This document shows positions 229 to 9,452 of a stretch of 9,452 bases of DNA, in pieces; within the stretch, counting starts at the first letter, position 1; every line of letters starts with the position of its first letter. The notes beneath the pieces were generated by a model. The model was not told the DNA's origin. It saw nothing but the letters and a program-made list of their open reading frames with translations, and searched no databases. Source of the DNA: JBGPLH01 sp041486365 [NCBI: Thermodesulfobacteriota bacterium]. GTDB lineage: Bacteria; JAUYMQ01. Made by a program: the position numbers and the translations under genes. The stretch is taken from positions 1 through 9,452 of the forward strand of contig JBGPLH010000106.1 in the NCBI GenBank assembly GCA_041486365.1, written 5' to 3'.

Positions 229-1290
229 GTGACAGAGCCCCAACCCCGCCGCCGGCCGCTCGCCGGCGTGGAACCGATCGAGATCGCCCTCATCGGCGCG
301 ACGGAGGCGGCCGGGGAGGAGGTGCTCGCGCAGCTCATCGAGCGCGACTTCCCGGTGCGGCGGCTTCGCGTGCTCGCGGGTCACGAGATGGTGACGGGGG
401 AGGAGATCGCCTTTCGCGGGAAGGATCTGCGCGAGGAGCTTCTCTCCGAGAGCGTCTTCGAGGGGGTCGACATCGCGATCTTCGCCGCGGGCGCCGCGGA
501 CGCGCGCCGGTGGGGGAAGGCAGCCGCGGGCGCGGGCGCCGTCGTGATCGACGCGACAGGAACCTTCGCGCGGGAGGCGCCGGTGATCGTCCCGGAGATC
601 AATCCGCAGGCCATCCCCGAGCATCCCGGCATCCTCGCGAGCCCGACCCCGGCGACGGTGGCCCTCGCGCTCGTGCTCGATCCGCTGCACGCGGCCGCAG
701 GGCTGCGCCGCGTCGTGGTGTCGACCTACCAGGCCGCCTCCGGCATCGGCCGCGCCGGGATGGACGAGCTTTCCGCCCAGAGCCGGGCCGTCTTCAGCGG
801 CGACGATTCGGAGCCCGATCTCTTCCCGCACCGGTTGGCCTTCAACCTCATCCCGCACACGGACGCCTTCGAGACAGAGGGCCCGCTCGCGGGCTCGACG
901 CGCGAGGAGGCGCGGATCGCGAGGGAGACGCCGGGGATCCTGGGCGCGGAAGGCCTCCGCGTCACCGCGACCGCCGTGCGCGTTCCGGTGTTCGTGGGCG
1001 TGGCACTCTCGGTGAACGTCGAGCTGGCGCAGCCGCTCCCCCTCGAGAAGGCGCGCGAGGAGATTGCGGCGGCGCCGGGGTTGCGGCTCATCGACGAGCC
1101 GGCCTTCCATCTCTACCCGCTCCCCGCGGAAGTCACCGGGCGTGACGACGTGTTCGTCGGGCGAGTGCGAACGGACCCGACGGTGCCCAGCGGCCTGAAC
1201 CTCTGGGTCGTCGCCGACGATCTCCGGCGCGGCGTCGGTATCAATGTCGTGGGAATCGCCGAGGCGCTGCTCAAACGCCGGCATCCCTGA
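229..1290 (+). CDS. Aspartate-semialdehyde dehydrogenase family protein (Asd/Usg-like), probably catalytically inactive
   Basis: The protein has 353 residues from GTG 229, preceded by GAGGAA at 218-223. Fold signatures of the Asd family are clear: a Rossmann start (GATEAAG, residues 23-29), VVSTYQAASG with the substrate-site Gln168, FNLIPHTDAFE (205-215), TREEAR, and RVPV with Arg251. Three active-site positions are changed. The catalytic-Cys motif NPNCST reads SPTPAT (138-143), so Cys is Pro141. The base motif GHSE reads GVAL (257-260), so His is Val258. The second Gly of the GATGAVG loop is Glu26, and the RSAG motif that contacts the NADP phosphate is missing. The normal enzyme reduces aspartyl phosphate to the semialdehyde for Lys/Met/Thr synthesis. 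This copy should not form the thioester intermediate. It lies 26 bases before truA, echoing E. coli usg-truA, where Usg is an inactive Asd paralogue. Family assignment is firm; loss of activity and the Usg comparison are inference. Confidence 0.88.
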   Translation: MTEPQPRRRPLAGVEPIEIALIGATEAAGEEVLAQLIERDFPVRRLRVLAGHEMVTGEEIAFRGKDLREELLSESVFEGVDIAIFAAGAADARRWGKAAAGAGAVVIDATGTFAREAPVIVPEINPQAIPEHPGILASPTPATVALALVLDPLHAAAGLRRVVVSTYQAASGIGRAGMDELSAQSRAVFSGDDSEPDLFPHRLAFNLIPHTDAFETEGPLAGSTREEARIARETPGILGAEGLRVTATAVRVPVFVGVALSVNVELAQPLPLEKAREEIAAAPGLRLIDEPAFHLYPLPAEVTGRDDVFVGRVRTDPTVPSGLNLWVVADDLRRGVGINVVGIAEALLKRRHP

Positions 1291-1316: not shown

Positions 1317-2093
1317 ATGCGTCACGTGAAGCTCATCCTCGAGTACGACGGCACGGCCTACGGGGGCTGGCAGCGTCAGAAGGGAGCCGTGACACTACAG
1401 CAGGTCCTCGAGGAGAAGCTCGAGGTCCTGCTGCGCCACCCGGCCAAGGCCGCCGCCGCCGGCCGCACGGACGCCGGCGTCCACGCGACAGGCCAGGGGG
1501 CCTGCTTCCGGACCGACGCGTCGCTCTCCCCGGATCGCATCCGCAAGGGGCTCAACGCGCTCCTCCCCGACGACATCGCGGTCGTGGAGGCCTCGGAGGT
1601 TGCCGCGCGCTTCGATCCCCGGCGCCACGCGCGGGGCAAGCTTTACCGCTACCTCGTCTGGAACCGCCCGTCGCGCCCGGCGCTGCTCCGGCACCGCGCC
1701 TGGCACGTGCGCGAGCCGCTCGATCTGCCCGCCATGCGCGCCGCGGCGAAGGTCCTCCGGGGCGAGCAGGACTTCGCGGCCTTCCAGGCCTCCGGCTGCT
1801 CGGCGAAGACATCCGTCCGAACGCTCCGCCGGCTTTGGATCGGGCCCTGGGACGAGGGGGAGTTTGGCGAGGGGCTGCTGGCCTTCGAGGCAGAGGGAAC
1901 GGCCTTCCTGCGGTTCATGGTCCGGAACCTCGTTGGGACCCTCGTGGAGGTGGGCCTGGGGCGCCTTTCGCGGGCCGATGTGGCCCGCATCCTGGCCGGT
2001 CGCGACCGCCGGGCGGCCGGAAGGACGGCCCCGGCCTGCGGGCTCACGCTCGTCCGGGTGGACTACGACCGCGTAGCCCAGAATGAGCCTTGA
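1317..2093 (+). CDS. truA: tRNA pseudouridine(38-40) synthase TruA
   Basis: This 258-residue protein isomerises uridines 38-40 in the anticodon arm of many tRNAs to pseudouridine in the cytosol. The catalytic motif GRTDAGVHA is present at 49-57, with Asp52 as the nucleophile. Other conserved elements are the YDGTAYGGWQ start (10-19), the ARGKLYRY block with Tyr110, and MVRNLVG (201-207) with the conserved Arg203. Length matches the family (about 245-270). ATG 1317 is the natural start because the family signature begins within ten residues; the ribosome site is only a weak GCGGGG a few bases upstream. The gene follows the Asd-family gene by 26 bases and probably shares its transcript. Its stop codon overlaps the -35 hexamer of the rplM promoter. 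Confidence 0.97.
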   Translation: MRHVKLILEYDGTAYGGWQRQKGAVTLQQVLEEKLEVLLRHPAKAAAAGRTDAGVHATGQGACFRTDASLSPDRIRKGLNALLPDDIAVVEASEVAARFDPRRHARGKLYRYLVWNRPSRPALLRHRAWHVREPLDLPAMRAAAKVLRGEQDFAAFQASGCSAKTSVRTLRRLWIGPWDEGEFGEGLLAFEAEGTAFLRFMVRNLVGTLVEVGLGRLSRADVARILAGRDRRAAGRTAPACGLTLVRVDYDRVAQNEP

Positions 2094-2225: not shown

Positions 2226-2666
2226 ATGAAGACCTATTCCGCCAAGCCCGGGGAAGTCGAGAAGAAGTGGCACGTGGTGGACGTGAGCGGCCTGGTGCTC
2301 GGCCGCGTGGCCACGAAGATCGCCGACCTCCTTCGCGGCAAGCACAAGCCCGAGTTCACTCACCACACCGACACGGGTGATTTCGTGATCGTCGTGAACG
2401 CGGAGAAGGTGCGGCTCACCGGGAAGAAGTGGACCGACAAGCTCTACAGCCACCACACGGGCTACCCCGGGGGCCTCAGGCAGATCACGGCGGAGAAGCA
2501 GCGCGAGAAGGATCCGGCTTTCATCATCCGCGAGGCGGTGTGGGGGATGATCCCGAAGACGAAGCTCGGCAAGGCGCAGATCAAGAAGCTCAAGGTCTAC
2601 GCAGGCCCCGACCATCCCCACCAGTCCCAGACCCCGGCCCCGCTCGCGCAGGCGAAGAGCGCCTGA
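2226..2666 (+). CDS. rplM: 50S ribosomal protein L13 (bL13/uL13)
   Basis: This 146-residue protein is a component of the large ribosomal subunit, close to the 142 residues of E. coli L13. Recognisable blocks are [16 protein letters not shown] near the N terminus, [42 protein letters not shown], and [13 protein letters not shown] followed by [17 protein letters not shown] 2226 begins the family's [12 protein letters not shown] N terminus; an in-frame upstream start at 2142 would add 28 atypical residues and destroy the leader hairpins. The ribosome site is weak (GAGAAA at 2214-2219). The C-terminal few residues ([10 protein letters not shown]) are a short lineage-specific tail. It is co-transcribed with rpsI, 32 bases downstream. 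Confidence 0.97.
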
Positions 2667-2698: not shown

Positions 2699-3100
2699 AT
2701 GGCGGAAGCAGCCCAGGTATTCGTCACGACGGGGAAACGCAAGACGGCGGTCGCCCGCCTGCGCATGAAGCACGGCGATGGGAAGATCATCGTCAACGGC
2801 AAGCCGATGGACGAGTACTTCGGCGGCCTGGAGACCTCCAAGCTGATCATCAAGCAGCCGCTCGAAATCACGAACACGCTGGGCCGGTACGATATCGTCG
2901 TGACCCTTCGCGGCGGCGGCAAGGTGGGCGGCGCATCCGCGATCCGACACGGGATCACGCGGGCGCTCCTGCTGGCCGATCCGGGCTTCCGGACGCCGCT
3001 CAAGCGCGCCGGGTTCGTGACGCGCGACAGCCGGATCAAGGAGCGCAAGAAGTACGGCCAGAAGGGCGCGCGCGCACGCTTCCAGTTCAGCAAGCGCTGA
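2699..3100 (+). CDS. rpsI: 30S ribosomal protein S9 (uS9)
   Basis: This 133-residue protein is a component of the small subunit whose C-terminal tail reaches the P-site tRNA. The N terminus carries [16 protein letters not shown], followed by a [16 protein letters not shown] block, the [21 protein letters not shown] core, and [20 protein letters not shown] at the C terminus, with the invariant FSKR end intact. The core Gly-rich segment reads [10 protein letters not shown] where many family members have GQAGAIRHGI, a mild variation. Start ATG 2699 follows CGAGAGAC, a weak ribosome site. The rplM-rpsI order is the standard bacterial operon, and the intrinsic terminator just downstream closes the unit. 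Confidence 0.97.
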
Positions 3101-3232: not shown

Positions 3233-4261
3233 ATGATCCAGGTCGCCATCGCGGGAGCAAGCGGGTACACGGGGCTCGAGCTGCTCCGAATCCTGCTGCG
3301 CCACCCCGGGGTCACGATCACCGCGGTGACCAGCGAGCAGCACGACGGGAAGCCCGTGAACGAGGTCTTCCCGGGGCTCGTGGACGCGGGCGGGCTGGTG
3401 TGCCGGTCGCTCAAGACGGCCGATCTGGCGAAGCGCGCCGACGTGGTCTTCACGGCGCTACCCCACGGCACCGCGATGCAGACGGTCGCGGAGGTGGTGG
3501 ACGCGGGAAAGCGCGCGATCGACATCTCGGCGGACTATCGCCTCCACGACCTCGCCGTCCACGAGAAAACCTACGGCAAGCACGCGCGTCCCGATCTGCT
3601 CGCGAAGGCGGTGTACGGACTTCCCGAGCTTCACCGCGAGGCCATCCGCGGCGCGAAGCTCGTGGCGAACCCGGGCTGCTACCCCACGGGCGCCATCCTC
3701 GCGCTGGCGCCCCTCCTGCGCGAGAGGCTGATCGAGCCGGAGCAGATCATCGTGGACGCCAAGTCGGGTGTCTCCGGCGCGGGTCGAGCGGCCAGCGTGG
3801 ACATGCTGTTCTCCGAGGTGCACGGGAGCATCAAGGCCTACAAGGTCGCCGAGCACCGGCACCAGCCCGAGATCGAGCAGGAGCTGTCGGGAATCGCCGG
3901 GCGGCCGATCGTGATCTCCTTCACGCCCCACCTCGTTCCCATGGACCGGGGCATCCTCTCGACGATCTACGTGACCCCGAAGCGCGGCGCCGACATCGCG
4001 GGCGCCTATGCCGCCGCCTACAAGGACGAGCCCTTCGTCCGCGTGCTGCCCCACGGGCAGGTCCCGGCCACGGGCCACGTCCTCGGCTCGAACTACGTCC
4101 TCATCGGCTGGAAGGAGGACCCGCGCACGGGCCGGGCCGTGATCGTCTCCGCCATCGATAACCTGGTGAAAGGCGCCTCCGGCCAGGCGGTCGAGAACAT
4201 GAACCTCATGTGCGGCCTGCCCGAGACAACGGCGCTGACGCAGCTCCCGCTGTTCCCTTGA
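3233..4261 (+). CDS. argC: N-acetyl-gamma-glutamyl-phosphate reductase
   Basis: This 342-residue cytosolic enzyme performs the third step of arginine synthesis, NADPH-dependent reduction of N-acetylglutamyl phosphate to the semialdehyde. The Rossmann motif [10 protein letters not shown] sits at residues 8-17. The catalytic Cys149 lies in ANPGCYPTG, and the HRHQPEI block (208-214) holds the active-site His. [10 protein letters not shown] (175-184) and [12 protein letters not shown] are typical. Length matches the long-form ArgC (about 340-350). ATG 3233 is supported by GGAGAGG nine bases upstream and by the Rossmann motif starting at residue 8. It is the first gene after the rpsI terminator, and hyuA starts 31 bases after its stop with no terminator between, so argC-hyuA-hyuB is probably one operon. 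No other arg genes are in view. Confidence 0.96.
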
Positions 4262-4292: not shown

Positions 4293-6323
4293 GTGAAACG
4301 CGCCGAACCCACCCGCGCCGGAATCGACACCGGCGGCACGTTCACGGATCTCGTGGTTGCGGGGCCGGACGGGTTGCACGTCGTCAAGGTCCTATCCACA
4401 CCCCGCGATCCGGCGCACGCGGTGCTGGCTGTGCTCGAGGAGGCGAAGGTCCCGAAGGGGCGCGACGTCACCGTCGTGCACGGCACCACGGTGGCGACGA
4501 ACACGCTCCTGACACGGACCGGCGCGCGGACGGCTCTCGTCACGACTGCGGGCTTCGAGGACGTGCTCGCGCTGGGGCGTCAGGCCCGGCCGAGCCTCTA
4601 CGATCTCTTCCAGACCGTTCCAGAGCCTCTCGTCCCCGATGCGCTGCGGTTCGGCGTGGACACACGTACCACGCACGACGGCACGCTGGAGTCGCCGCCG
4701 AAGCCCGAGGACCTGAAGCACCTCGTGACCACGCTCCGTCACGCCAGGCCCGAAGCCATCGCCGTCTGCCTCCTCTTTTCTTACGCCAATCCCGACGCCG
4801 AGGAGCGCATTGCCCGCGCGCTGAAACCGCTCGGGGTTCCGCTCTCCGTCTCCTCGCGCCTCCTCCCCGAGTACCGTGAGTACGAGCGCACGAGCACGAC
4901 CTGCGTGAATGCCTACGTGGCGCCGCGCATGTCGGCCTACCTCGACGGCCTGGGTCGCGCGGTGGGCCGGAGGCTCCGCGTGATGCAGTCGAGCGGCGGA
5001 TCGCTCTCGGCGCGGGCTGCATCGGCCGAGCCGGTGCGCACGGTGCTTTCTGGCCCGGCGGGCGGCGTCGTGGGCGCCCGCGCGGTCGCGGCGCGGGCTG
5101 GCTTCGACAGGATCATCTCCTTCGACATGGGCGGCACCTCGACGGACGTTTGCCTCGTGGAAGGCGAGATCCGCACGACCTCCGAGGCTTCGGTCGCGGG
5201 ATGTCCGATCCGCGTACCCGTCATCGACATCCACACCGTTGGTGCGGGGGGCGGGTCTATTGCATGGGTCGACGAGGGGGGCGCGCTTCGCGTGGGGCCG
5301 CAGTCCGCCGGGGCTGATCCCGGTCCCATCTGCTACGGGAAGGGGAGGGCGCTCACGGTGACCGACGCGAACCTCTTCCTCGGCCGCCTCCACGCGGGCA
5401 CAGCGCTCGCGGGACGCGTGCGGATGAAGCCCGCCCGCATCGCGGCGCCGCTCGGCGCGGCCGCGAGGAAGCTCCGCCTTTCCCGGGACCGCGCCGCGGA
5501 GGGCGTGCTCGCCATCGCGAACGCCACGATGGAGAAGGCCCTCCGGGTGATCTCCATGGAGCGTGGCCACGATCCGCGCGAGTTCGCCCTCGTGGCCTTC
5601 GGCGGCGCGGGGCCCGTGCACGCGGCCGATCTCGCACGCGCCCTGCGCATTCCCACCGTGATCGTGCCCCGCATGGCCGGAGTGCTTTCGGCGCTCGGCC
5701 TCCTCTTCGCGGACGTCGCGAAGGATTTTTCGCGCACGCTATTCGTCGCGGCCGACCCGCGTGGATGGCGGCGCGCGCAGACGGTCTTCCGAGAGCTGGA
5801 GGCGCGGGCCCGTCGGGACATGGCGGCAGAGGGCGTCTCCCCGCGGGATCTGCGCCTGGAGCGCGCGCTCGATCTGCGCTACGCGGGGCAGAGCTACGAG
5901 CTGACCGTCCCGGCGACCAGAGACTTCGCCACGCGGTTCAAGCGGCTCCACGAGAAGACCTACGGACACGCCTATCCGGGCCGCGCGATCGAGCTTGTGA
6001 ACGTGCGGCTTCGCGCGGTGGCGCGCGCGGCGCACCCGCTGCTGCCCCCGCCGAAGAAGGCGACGCGGGCCAGGGGCGCGCGGGACGCGATCGTCGCCCG
6101 TCAGCGGATGCTCTTCGGCGGGAGATGGGGTGAGGGGCTCGTCCTCGATCGCGAAGGGCTCCTGCCCGGCGTGGAAATCCGCGGCCCCGCCATCGTCGTC
6201 GAGGTGTCGGCCACGACGGTTGTCCCTCCCGATTTCAAGCTGCGCGTGGACGGCCACGGAAACCTTCTCCTCTCGGCGGCCGCGTCCCCGCGTCCGCGGC
6301 GACGCCTCTCCCGAGGACGATGA
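4293..6323 (+). CDS. hyuA: Hydantoinase/oxoprolinase family protein, subunit A (HyuA type)
   Basis: This 676-residue protein is the ATP-binding subunit of an ATP-dependent cyclic-amide hydrolase or related carboxylase. Actin-fold nucleotide-binding signatures appear in order: IDTGGTFTDL (11-20), HGTTVATN (63-70), SGPAGG (253-258) and FDMGGTSTD (277-285), then IDIHTVGAGGGS (311-322) and a GADPGPICYGKG block. PEYREYERT (192-200) is also typical. Length is normal for HyuA (about 680). Substrates in this family include 5-oxoproline, N-methylhydantoin and acetone/acetophenone; sequence alone does not choose among them, though a 5-oxoprolinase is the commonest guess. GTG 4293 is the only start that keeps the first phosphate motif, and no purine-rich ribosome site precedes it, so coupling to argC is likely. 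Its stop overlaps hyuB by ATGA. Confidence 0.9.
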   Translation: MKRAEPTRAGIDTGGTFTDLVVAGPDGLHVVKVLSTPRDPAHAVLAVLEEAKVPKGRDVTVVHGTTVATNTLLTRTGARTALVTTAGFEDVLALGRQARPSLYDLFQTVPEPLVPDALRFGVDTRTTHDGTLESPPKPEDLKHLVTTLRHARPEAIAVCLLFSYANPDAEERIARALKPLGVPLSVSSRLLPEYREYERTSTTCVNAYVAPRMSAYLDGLGRAVGRRLRVMQSSGGSLSARAASAEPVRTVLSGPAGGVVGARAVAARAGFDRIISFDMGGTSTDVCLVEGEIRTTSEASVAGCPIRVPVIDIHTVGAGGGSIAWVDEGGALRVGPQSAGADPGPICYGKGRALTVTDANLFLGRLHAGTALAGRVRMKPARIAAPLGAAARKLRLSRDRAAEGVLAIANATMEKALRVISMERGHDPREFALVAFGGAGPVHAADLARALRIPTVIVPRMAGVLSALGLLFADVAKDFSRTLFVAADPRGWRRAQTVFRELEARARRDMAAEGVSPRDLRLERALDLRYAGQSYELTVPATRDFATRFKRLHEKTYGHAYPGRAIELVNVRLRAVARAAHPLLPPPKKATRARGARDAIVARQRMLFGGRWGEGLVLDREGLLPGVEIRGPAIVVEVSATTVVPPDFKLRVDGHGNLLLSAAASPRPRRRLSRGR

Positions 6324-7912
6324 TGACCGCTCGCTTCGATCCGATCCGCCTGGGCGTCCTCAATCACCTCTTCGCGAGCATCGCGGAGGAGATGGGCGCG
6401 AGCCTCATGCGGACGGCGTTCTCCGTGAACATCAAGGAGCGGCGTGATCTTTCCTGCGCCGTCTTCGATGCCGACGCGCGGCTCGTCGCCCACGCGGCCC
6501 ACATCCCCGTGCACCTTGGATCCACGCCCGCCTGCGTGCGCGCGGTGCTGGACGCGATGAGGCTCGACCCGGGCGACGTCGCCATCGTGAACGACCCCTA
6601 CGCGGGAGGCACGCATCTCCCGGACATCACGCTCGTCTCGCCGGTGTACAGAAAGGGGACACGCAGGCCGCTCTTCTACGTCGCCAACCGTGCCCACCAC
6701 GCCGACGTGGGTGGCATCACGGCCGGCAGCATGCCGATCGCGCGCCACATCGATGAAGAAGGCGTGCGCATCCCGCCCCGCAAGCTCCGCCGGCGCGGCA
6801 AGATCGACCGGAAGTTCCTCCGCTGGTTCCTCTCCCAGGTCCGCACCCCCGACGAGCGTGAAGGCGATCTTCGGGCCCAGCTCGCGGCGAATCACACGGC
6901 CGAGGCGCGGCTCCTGGCCGCGGCGGAGAAGCACGGACTGCCCGAGCTCAAGTCGGGGATCGACGCGCTGCTCGACTACGCCGAGCGTCTCACGCGCCAC
7001 GCGATCGCCGGTATGCGCCCGGGGCGCTACGCGTTCGAGGACGCGCTCGACGACGACGGCCTGGGCACGCGCGACGTGCGCATCCGCGCGCGCGTGACGC
7101 TCTGCGGAGGCCACGCCACGGTGGACTTCACGGGCAGCGCGCCGCAGGTCCAGGGGTCCGTGAACGCGGTCCTCCCGGTGACGCTCTCGGCGGTCTTCTA
7201 CGTCTTCCGGTGCCTCGCGGGCGAGGACGTTCCGTCCAACGCGGGCGGCATGCGCCCCCTCACGGTCATCGCGCCGGAGGGCACCGTGGTGAACGCGCGC
7301 TACCCCGCGCCGGTCGCCGGCGGGAACGTCGAGACGTCGCAGCGCATCGTCGACGTGGTGCTCGGCGCGCTGGCTGCGGCCGCGCCCGATCGGGTGCCGG
7401 CGGCAAGCGCGGGCTCGATGAACAACGTGACCCTCGGCGGCAGCACGTCGGATGGTCGCCCCTTCGCTTATTACGAGACGATTGGAGGAGGGATGGGGGC
7501 GAGGCCGGGGCTGGACGGCCTCTCGGGTGTTCAGACGCACATGACGAACACGCTCAATACGCCCATCGAAGCGCTCGAGCACGCCTTCCCCTTCCGCGTG
7601 AGCCGCTACGCCCTGCGACCGGGTTCGGGGGGGCCGGGCAAGTTCCGGGGTGGGAACGGGGTCATCCGCGAGTACGAGACCCGCGTGCCCACGGAAGTGA
7701 CCCTCCTCACGGAGCGGCGCAGGCGTGCGCCCTGGGGACTTTCTGGAGGCGGTGCGGGCGCTTGCGGGGAGAACCTGCTATTTCACGGCACCTCCGCACG
7801 GAAGCTGCCAGGCAAGGTGACGTTCATCCTCCAGCCCGGCGAGCGCCTGTCGCTGCGGACCCCCGGCGGAGGCGGTTGGGGCCGGGCGGGGAGCGCCGCT
7901 CGCGGAAGGTAG
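6320..7912 (+). CDS. hyuB: Hydantoinase/oxoprolinase family protein, subunit B (HyuB type)
   Basis: This 530-residue protein is the partner subunit of HyuA. Family hallmarks are NDPYAGGTHLPD (91-102), RAHHADVGG (124-132) whose His and Asp are the likely metal ligands, ARHIDEEGVRIPP, a central DFTGSAPQVQGSVNAV block, GGNVETSQRIVD, and TPGGGGWG near the C terminus. Length fits the family (about 510-590). Two adjacent ATGs are possible, 6320 and 6323: GAGG at 6313-6316 is better spaced for the second, giving 529 residues. The ATGA/TGATGA junction with hyuA implies translational coupling and a fixed subunit ratio. The last residues (GRAGSAARGR) are a basic tail. As with HyuA, the actual substrate is not determinable here. 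No transcription terminator is visible after the gene. Confidence 0.9.
   Translation: MMTARFDPIRLGVLNHLFASIAEEMGASLMRTAFSVNIKERRDLSCAVFDADARLVAHAAHIPVHLGSTPACVRAVLDAMRLDPGDVAIVNDPYAGGTHLPDITLVSPVYRKGTRRPLFYVANRAHHADVGGITAGSMPIARHIDEEGVRIPPRKLRRRGKIDRKFLRWFLSQVRTPDEREGDLRAQLAANHTAEARLLAAAEKHGLPELKSGIDALLDYAERLTRHAIAGMRPGRYAFEDALDDDGLGTRDVRIRARVTLCGGHATVDFTGSAPQVQGSVNAVLPVTLSAVFYVFRCLAGEDVPSNAGGMRPLTVIAPEGTVVNARYPAPVAGGNVETSQRIVDVVLGALAAAAPDRVPAASAGSMNNVTLGGSTSDGRPFAYYETIGGGMGARPGLDGLSGVQTHMTNTLNTPIEALEHAFPFRVSRYALRPGSGGPGKFRGGNGVIREYETRVPTEVTLLTERRRRAPWGLSGGGAGACGENLLFHGTSARKLPGKVTFILQPGERLSLRTPGGGGWGRAGSAARGR

Positions 7913-8163: not shown

Positions 8164-9452
<1,289 letters not shown>

What the first reader, a model, noticed from the sequence alone, without database searches (positions are those of the whole stretch)
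229..1290. Asd paralogue without its catalytic Cys and His, placed next to truA
The gene would be annotated automatically as aspartate-semialdehyde dehydrogenase, yet the catalytic Cys motif NPNCST reads SPTPAT, the base motif GHSE reads GVAL, the Rossmann loop GATGAVG reads GATEAAG, and the NADP-contact RSAG is absent. The reading frame is otherwise full-length and well conserved (Gln168, Arg251, FNLIPH and the C-terminal block), so it appears to be under selection rather than decaying. E. coli usg, another Asd-family protein lacking the catalytic Cys, also sits directly upstream of truA; finding the same pairing in an apparently distant lineage suggests an old non-enzymatic role, perhaps tied to tRNA modification or as a partner of true Asd. 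The pairing and substitutions are seen; the role is inference.
Basis: partly seen in the sequence, partly recalled or inferred. Interest (0 to 1): 0.65.

Follow-up and report, generated by a model that had tools for sequence, protein, structure and literature searches.

The report
Dead Asd enzyme gene beside truA
A gene that looks like a standard amino-acid-synthesis enzyme has lost its active site but still makes a full-length protein next to a tRNA-modification gene; other bacteria show the same change several separate times, which suggests the protein has a second, unknown job.

Summary
Confirmed: window 229-1290 encodes a full-length Asd_B-type protein whose catalytic Cys is Pro, base His is Val and NADP contacts are gone, directly upstream of truA-rplM-rpsI-argC. 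The comparison with E. coli usg is apt, but one old non-enzymatic lineage is not supported: the asd-truA pairing also exists with intact Asd in several classes. Of 169 distinct Asd_B-type sequences fetched (a sample biased towards divergent ones), 44 lack the Cys and 42 of these lie directly upstream of truA; three more turned up later. Without active-site columns a single origin of the dead state is rejected (AU p 2.4e-5; two smaller earlier tests did not reject it). Of 46 dead-copy genomes checked, 45 have another, intact Asd (archaeal-type, gamma-type or second Asd_B). Dead copies show purifying selection (dN/dS 0.13-0.33 in 16 of 18 pairs), like truA beside them. Best reading: a housekeeping asd turned pseudoenzyme in place, kept for a non-catalytic role tied to truA; that role is inference. 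Against it: the gene is absent before truA in 7 of 21 comparable loci of one class. The window's genome is not held, so its second Asd is predicted and its tree position unresolved.

The parts
229..1290 (+). asdX: Asd_B-type pseudoenzyme gene (GTG start at 229; another in-frame GTG at 268)
295..315 (+). cofactor loop GATEAAG (GATGAVG in intact relatives)
640..657 (+). active-site loop SPTPAT (NPNCST in most intact relatives); Cys codon position reads Pro
727..744 (+). YQAASG, active-site Gln kept
979..981 (+). Arg239, substrate-site Arg kept
997..1008 (+). GVAL in place of GHSE: base His reads Val, Glu reads Leu
1317..2093 (+). truA, tRNA pseudouridine(38-40) synthase (TIGR00071 168.5 bits over cut-off 142.85)
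2226..2666 (+). rplM (start chosen by eye at MKTYSAK; the listed ORF begins at 2142)
2699..3100 (+). rpsI (start chosen by eye)
3233..4261 (+). argC (TIGR01850 440.6 bits)

Best explanation
The gene descends, in its original place, from the housekeeping truA-linked asd (Asd_B type). Once another Asd of a different kind was present in the genome (seen in 45 of 46 dead-copy relatives, predicted for the window), the truA-linked copy lost its catalytic Cys and His and its cofactor contacts. It was often kept instead of discarded because the Asd-fold protein has a non-catalytic task tied to truA; most likely the folded protein, made from the same operon as TruA, supports TruA amount or activity as a partner or regulatory subunit (inference). 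Split of belief: pseudoenzyme after functional replacement, kept by selection, about 0.8; task acting on TruA at the protein level, about 0.4.
For: Dead motif with full-length fold. 42 of 44 dead sequences directly upstream of truA, plus L279, L303, L312. Other, intact Asd in 45 of 46 dead-copy genomes against 3 of 19 genomes with an intact truA-linked Asd in the class of G469. Series of states in the class of G070 with the window's gene order. One origin of the dead state rejected. dN/dS of dead copies 0.13-0.33 in 16 of 18 pairs, against 0.06-0.41 for truA in 16 of the same pairs. In Salmonella usg and truA are co-transcribed, their deletions behave alike, and a truA plasmid restores the usg deletion (PMC6358828, passages and section 2.1).
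Against: The window genome is not held, so a second Asd and selection on the window gene itself are untested; its branch is long and unplaced. The association with a second Asd is not independent of kinship: the corrected test has 4 usable pairs and says nothing. G521 has no other Asd found; several intact carriers also have a second Asd. In the class of G070 the gene is gone before truA in 7 of 21 comparable loci, so the task is dispensable there. Two dead copies are not next to truA (L113, L186). In Salmonella the truA plasmid, apparently not the usg plasmid, restores function, which fits a cis effect. No physical contact with TruA was tested.
Confidence: 0.6

Rival explanations
1. Cis role only: the upstream frame is kept because truA translation or transcription depends on ribosomes passing through it (coupling); the protein itself does nothing.
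For: Short distance to truA in the window (26 bp) and a 1-base overlap of usg and truA in E. coli. Salmonella usg deletion restored by a truA plasmid, and the text implies not by the usg plasmid (PMC6358828).
Against: Amino-acid-level purifying selection in dead copies at the level of truA itself and conserved residues far from the junction, such as R27, D96, G162, D318, G323 and E333 kept in all aligned dead rows. In Salmonella truA mRNA was not lower but higher in the usg deletion under oxidative conditions.
Confidence: 0.3
2. The dead protein is kept for a role unrelated to TruA, for example sensing a metabolite or NADP(H) or acting in another complex; the truA neighbourhood is inherited from the intact asd.
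For: The asd-truA pairing exists before the loss, so position alone proves nothing; L113 is kept away from truA; the window keeps Gln156, Glu214 and Arg239.
Against: Most dead copies have lost substrate-site residues (Glu214 kept in 5%, Lys217 in 0%, Gln156 in 19%) and 45 of 47 known dead copies stay beside truA.
Confidence: 0.2
3. The window gene is a decaying relic: recently freed from selection, not yet broken.
For: Long branch (1.0-1.5 changes per column); gene lost in 7 of 21 loci of the class of G070.
Against: Full length, no stop, coding-like codon positions, and so divergent (46-49% to the nearest intact copies) that decay without a stop or frameshift is unlikely; relatives show selection.
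Confidence: 0.1
4. Regulatory subunit of the catalytic Asd (mixed dimers).
For: The dimerisation domain PF02774 is well preserved in the window (152.3 bits).
Against: In 37 of 46 dead-copy genomes the other Asd is of a distant type (34 archaeal-type, 3 gamma-type), in 8 an Asd_B, in 1 none was found; mixed dimers with the distant types are unlikely (inference).
Confidence: 0.05

Closest known systems
Usg of E. coli K-12 (b2319) and the USG-1 homologue of P. aeruginosa (PDB 2hjs)
   Same: Asd_B-type fold, active-site Cys lost; E. coli usg lies directly upstream of truA. The 2hjs protein also lacks the His and has Leu where Glu stands (read from the alignment).
   Different: E. coli Usg keeps the His and has lost Gln and Arg, the reverse of the window. 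By sequence Usg falls with intact V. cholerae Asd II; the window does not clearly join it. Window scores under the Usg-type NCBIfam cut-offs.
   Same: Place; in the class of G070 the whole order asd-truA-rplM-rpsI-argC; up to 49% identity.
   Different: They keep Cys and His.
Dead truA-linked Asd copies of the class of G469, and L303 and L312 of the class of G070 (found here)
   Same: No catalytic Cys, directly upstream of truA, Pro often in the Cys place (33 of 42); L303 and L312 share the window's gene order.
   Different: Separate branches; window with L303 and L312 rejected (AU p 0.024), window with the dead copies of class G469 not rejected (p 0.16-0.69).

Membership tests
Active aspartate-semialdehyde dehydrogenase, Asd_B | Asd fold and both Pfam domains | tested here: met
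Active aspartate-semialdehyde dehydrogenase, Asd_B | catalytic Cys in NPNC[ST]T | tested here: not met
   SPTPAT
Active aspartate-semialdehyde dehydrogenase, Asd_B | base His in GHSE | tested here: not met
   GVAL
Active aspartate-semialdehyde dehydrogenase, Asd_B | curated model cut-offs | tested here: inconclusive
   NF011456 328 bits over 223; TIGR01296 307.2 bits under 324.2
Active aspartate-semialdehyde dehydrogenase, Asd_B | enzyme activity | not testable with these tools
   needs protein
Usg | Asd_B-type protein without the catalytic Cys | tested here: met
Usg | directly upstream of truA (as in E. coli) | tested here: met
Usg | NCBIfam models closest to Usg (PRK08040, which E. coli Usg matches at 683.5 bits; PRK05671) | tested here: not met
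   window 198.7 bits under cut-off 273 and 224.7 under 284
Usg | common descent with Usg after loss of catalysis | tested here: inconclusive
   AU p 0.30 and 0.12 for grouping, tree places them apart
Usg | another catalytic Asd in the same genome | not testable with these tools
   window genome not held; met in 45 of 46 dead-copy genomes of other lineages
Dead truA-linked clade of the class of G469 | common descent | tested here: inconclusive
   AU p 0.69, 0.47, 0.16; 9 of 16 typical residues shared, 5 of 10 away from the active site against 0-5 in 125 intact rows

The most novel reading that the evidence does not exclude
The truA-linked Asd is a hidden bifunctional protein in many bacteria: besides making aspartate semialdehyde it has a non-catalytic function in TruA-dependent tRNA modification, which becomes visible each time another Asd takes over catalysis and the old copy survives as a pseudoenzyme (at least five separate times in the tree, E. 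coli Usg included). It could couple amino-acid supply to pseudouridylation of the anticodon arm.
Probability: 0.28. Interest if true: 0.85.

Novelty: new variant of a known kind. Interest (0 to 1): 0.62.

Why it matters
E. coli usg is still annotated only as a putative semialdehyde dehydrogenase. The results turn it from an oddity of one lineage into a repeated natural experiment: an enzyme gene placed before truA keeps its protein after losing its chemistry. That makes 'what does the Asd fold do for truA?' directly testable in laboratory E. coli. It also flags annotations: curated models named aspartate-semialdehyde dehydrogenase accept the window protein, E. coli Usg and five of six dead proteins scanned, so predictions of amino-acid prototrophy from this gene alone can be wrong.

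Tried and rejected
Chance or misalignment: rejected; the sites align without gaps to 18 relatives and to PDB Asd.

Single old Usg lineage: a first tree with active-site columns kept put all dead sequences on one side (support 91). I did not rely on it, because E. coli Usg is 48% identical to intact V. cholerae Asd II and 39-40% to its next seven matches. With four active-site stretches dropped the fewest changes became 5 (2 forced), 4 (3 forced) and 7 (5 forced, 0 of 200 bootstrap trees with one). AU for one dead clade: p 0.34, 0.07, 2.4e-5. The last tree adds 14 sequences of the class of G070 (L303 and L312 among them) and leaves out 12 rows of the previous one (4 dead, 8 intact). The quick tree put the intact sisters L088, L189 and L199 on the intact side, unlike.

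Placing the window: not resolved. It shares 9 of 16 residues typical of the dead copies of other genomes against 0-7 in 125 intact rows, but away from the active site only 5 of 10 against 0-5, so I do not claim membership. Viral contigs gave no relative. Upstream 228 bp: no leuB, gamma-type or archaeal-type Asd encoded; repeat and promoter scans gave nothing useful.

Hidden dead Asd between leuB and truA in the class of G070: four such ORFs tested are CbiQ-like transporters, not Asd.

Kinship-corrected test of 'dead with second Asd': 4 pairs, uninformative. Papers: searches found one paper on the usg operon (PMC6358828: passages and section 2.1 seen) and, in their listings, none on repeated Asd pseudoenzymes beside truA; most subscription journals are not held. 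PMC7822408: passages only, nothing on usg beyond a citation.

Full report
Observation. Window 229-1290 (+) encodes a full-length Asd_B-type protein: NF011456 328 bits over a cut-off of 223, TIGR01296 307.2 bits under its cut-off of 324.2, PDB 2yv3 end to end at 233.7 bits. Against 18 relatives from genome contigs, 18 of 18 with Cys and His, it reads SPTPAT for NPNCST, GVAL for GHSE, GATEAAG for GATGAVG, and the RSAG cofactor contact is gone. Gln156, Glu214 and Arg239 are kept; Lys217 is Arg. AlphaFold2 gives the Asd fold (mean pLDDT 86.6; PDB 2qz9 TM 0.88, 2hjs 0.86). truA starts 26 bp downstream, followed by rplM, rpsI and argC.

Where it comes from. No whole genome is held for the window and no close relative was found. 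Best identities: 43% among 18 hits of genome contigs, 47% in 198 genomes of the phylum of G001, 46% in 52 of the phylum of G006, 48% in 147 relatives of G061 and in 63 of the class of G265, 49% in 148 of the class of G469; these sets overlap. TruA reaches 53% in 395 genomes and ArgC 62% in 277 genomes of the class of G070. The lineage is unknown; ArgC and the gene order lean towards the class of G070.

The asd-truA pairing belongs to the enzyme. Intact Asd directly upstream of truA occurs in two Planctomycetota loci (L014, L016), in the class of G265 (for example L051-L055), in part of the class of G469 (for example L153, L158, L162) and in the class of G070, where the window's order asd-truA-rplM-rpsI-argC is found (L084, L085; more). 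The pairing alone is therefore no mark of Usg.

The dead state is mostly found in that place. Reading the active-site columns of the fetched Asd_B-type sequences (240 residues or more) gave 169 distinct ones: 125 with Cys and His, 44 without the Cys, window and E. coli Usg included (recounted). The sample is not random: many loci were fetched because they scored low. 42 of the 44 lie directly upstream of truA. The two others are L113 (G076; no truA in 18 kb) and L186 (G572; none in the 1.28 kb to the contig end). Of the 125 intact ones 36 were seen linked, a lower bound because most loci had 1.5 kb of flank. Three more dead, truA-linked copies came later: L279 of G519, L303 of G785 and L312 of G736. 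In the Cys place 33 of 42 dead copies (window and E. coli left out) have Pro, as the window has.

Another Asd is present. PF02774 was sought in 68 genomes. Of the 41 with a dead copy, 40 have another Asd: 32 an archaeal-type one, fetched and aligned, with Cys, Gln, Arg and His in place in 32 of 32, and 8 a second Asd_B with Cys and His (L182, L184, L185, L190, L195, L197, L198, L208). In G521 none was found. G063 and G099 have the archaeal type and G076 a gamma type. G785 and G736 have an intact gamma type just upstream. Together 45 of 46. Of 19 genomes of the class of G469 with an intact truA-linked Asd, 3 have a second one (G469, G632, G633).

A series of states in one class. Of 40 argC regions of the class of G070, 21 show the block up to leuB or a gamma-type Asd: asdB(intact)>truA after leuB in 5; gamma-Asd>asdB(intact)>truA in 7; gamma-Asd>asdB(dead)>truA in 2; gamma-Asd>truA without asdB in 1 (4-bp gap); leuB>truA without asdB in 6. 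In the last six, four ORFs in the gap were tested and are CbiQ-like. In the remaining 19 regions the upstream block differs or is not covered. Replacement followed by loss of catalysis, or of the gene, would leave such a series. The 7 loci without asdB show that the gene can be done without.

Several independent losses. With active-site columns kept, all dead sequences fell together. With them removed, E. coli and P. aeruginosa Usg group with intact V. cholerae Asd II (98; 97/99), L303 and L312 nest inside intact copies of their class, and the dead copies of the class of G469 group with intact truA-linked sisters that have lost the Glu of the HSE motif (L088, L189, L199; 96/90, 99/99; not so in the quick tree). 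The tree of 46 rows needs 7 changes, 5 forced by supported branches, and 0 of 200 bootstrap trees have one; holding all dead together costs 124 log units, AU p 2.4e-5. Two earlier tests without L303 and L312 did not reject one clade (p 0.34 and 0.07). The window's branch stays unplaced: with the dead copies of class G469 p 0.16-0.69, with Usg 0.12-0.30, with L303 and L312 0.024.

Selection. Of 18 pairs of dead copies, dN/dS is 0.13-0.33 in 16, 0.62 in one (L115/L203) and undefined in one identical pair; in 14 intact pairs it is 0.03-0.19. truA in 16 of the same pairs gives 0.06-0.41. Dead copies are thus about twice as relaxed as the enzyme but about as constrained as the TruA beside them. These are simple Nei-Gojobori estimates, some with dS over 1, and some pairs share members. 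For the window gene itself nothing could be measured.

What it does. Lost: the chemistry, and in most dead copies also Glu214, Lys217 and Gln156 (kept in 5, 0 and 19%). Kept: residues such as R27, D96, G162, D318, G323 and E333, in all aligned dead rows, and the place before truA. The other Asd is of three types, so mixed Asd dimers are unlikely as a general role. In Salmonella pdxB-usg-truA-dedA are co-transcribed; usg and truA deletions behave alike in macrophages and under oxidative conditions; a truA plasmid restores them, and the text implies that the usg plasmid does not; truA mRNA was higher, not lower, in the usg deletion under oxidative conditions (PMC6358828, passages and section 2.1). 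I therefore think the retained task is tied to TruA. Whether the protein acts (favoured by amino-acid-level selection) or only its translation does (favoured by the complementation data) is open.

Verdict. The corrected picture is repeated, separate conversion of the truA-linked housekeeping asd into a pseudoenzyme; the window gene is a further case whose own second Asd and tree position could not be tested.

Noticed in passing
window 4293-7912: A two-gene hydantoinase/oxoprolinase-type pair (PF01968/PF05378 and PF02538; best NCBIfam hits are caprolactamase subunits, far under their cut-offs) lies between argC and kdsB.
   Followed up: no
window 8164-9045: kdsB-like protein of 293 aa; three of its NCBIfam models match in two stretches or only to about residue 164, suggesting an insertion near residue 165.
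   Followed up: no
L088, L189, L199 (class of G469): truA-linked Asd with Cys, His and Gln but GH[GTA]VAL in place of GHSE; two of these three genomes (G469, G632) also have an archaeal-type Asd. Possible early stage of the loss.
   Followed up: partly
L113 and L281 (G076): A dead Asd copy (CPRAAT, His kept) not next to truA in 18 kb, in a genome with a gamma-type Asd.
   Followed up: partly
L307, L314, L320, L328 (class of G070): A CbiQ-like transporter gene stands between leuB and truA where asd stands in relatives.
   Followed up: partly
L114 (G025) and L228 (G567): Very divergent Asd-like proteins with Cys and Gln but QCCRVA and VAVGHYENA at the Arg/His site; not truA-linked in the loci fetched. 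Function unknown.
   Followed up: no
NCBIfam models NF011456 and NF005957: Models named aspartate-semialdehyde dehydrogenase accept dead proteins: NF011456 takes the window and five of six dead proteins scanned (not L234); E. coli Usg passes both.
   Followed up: yes
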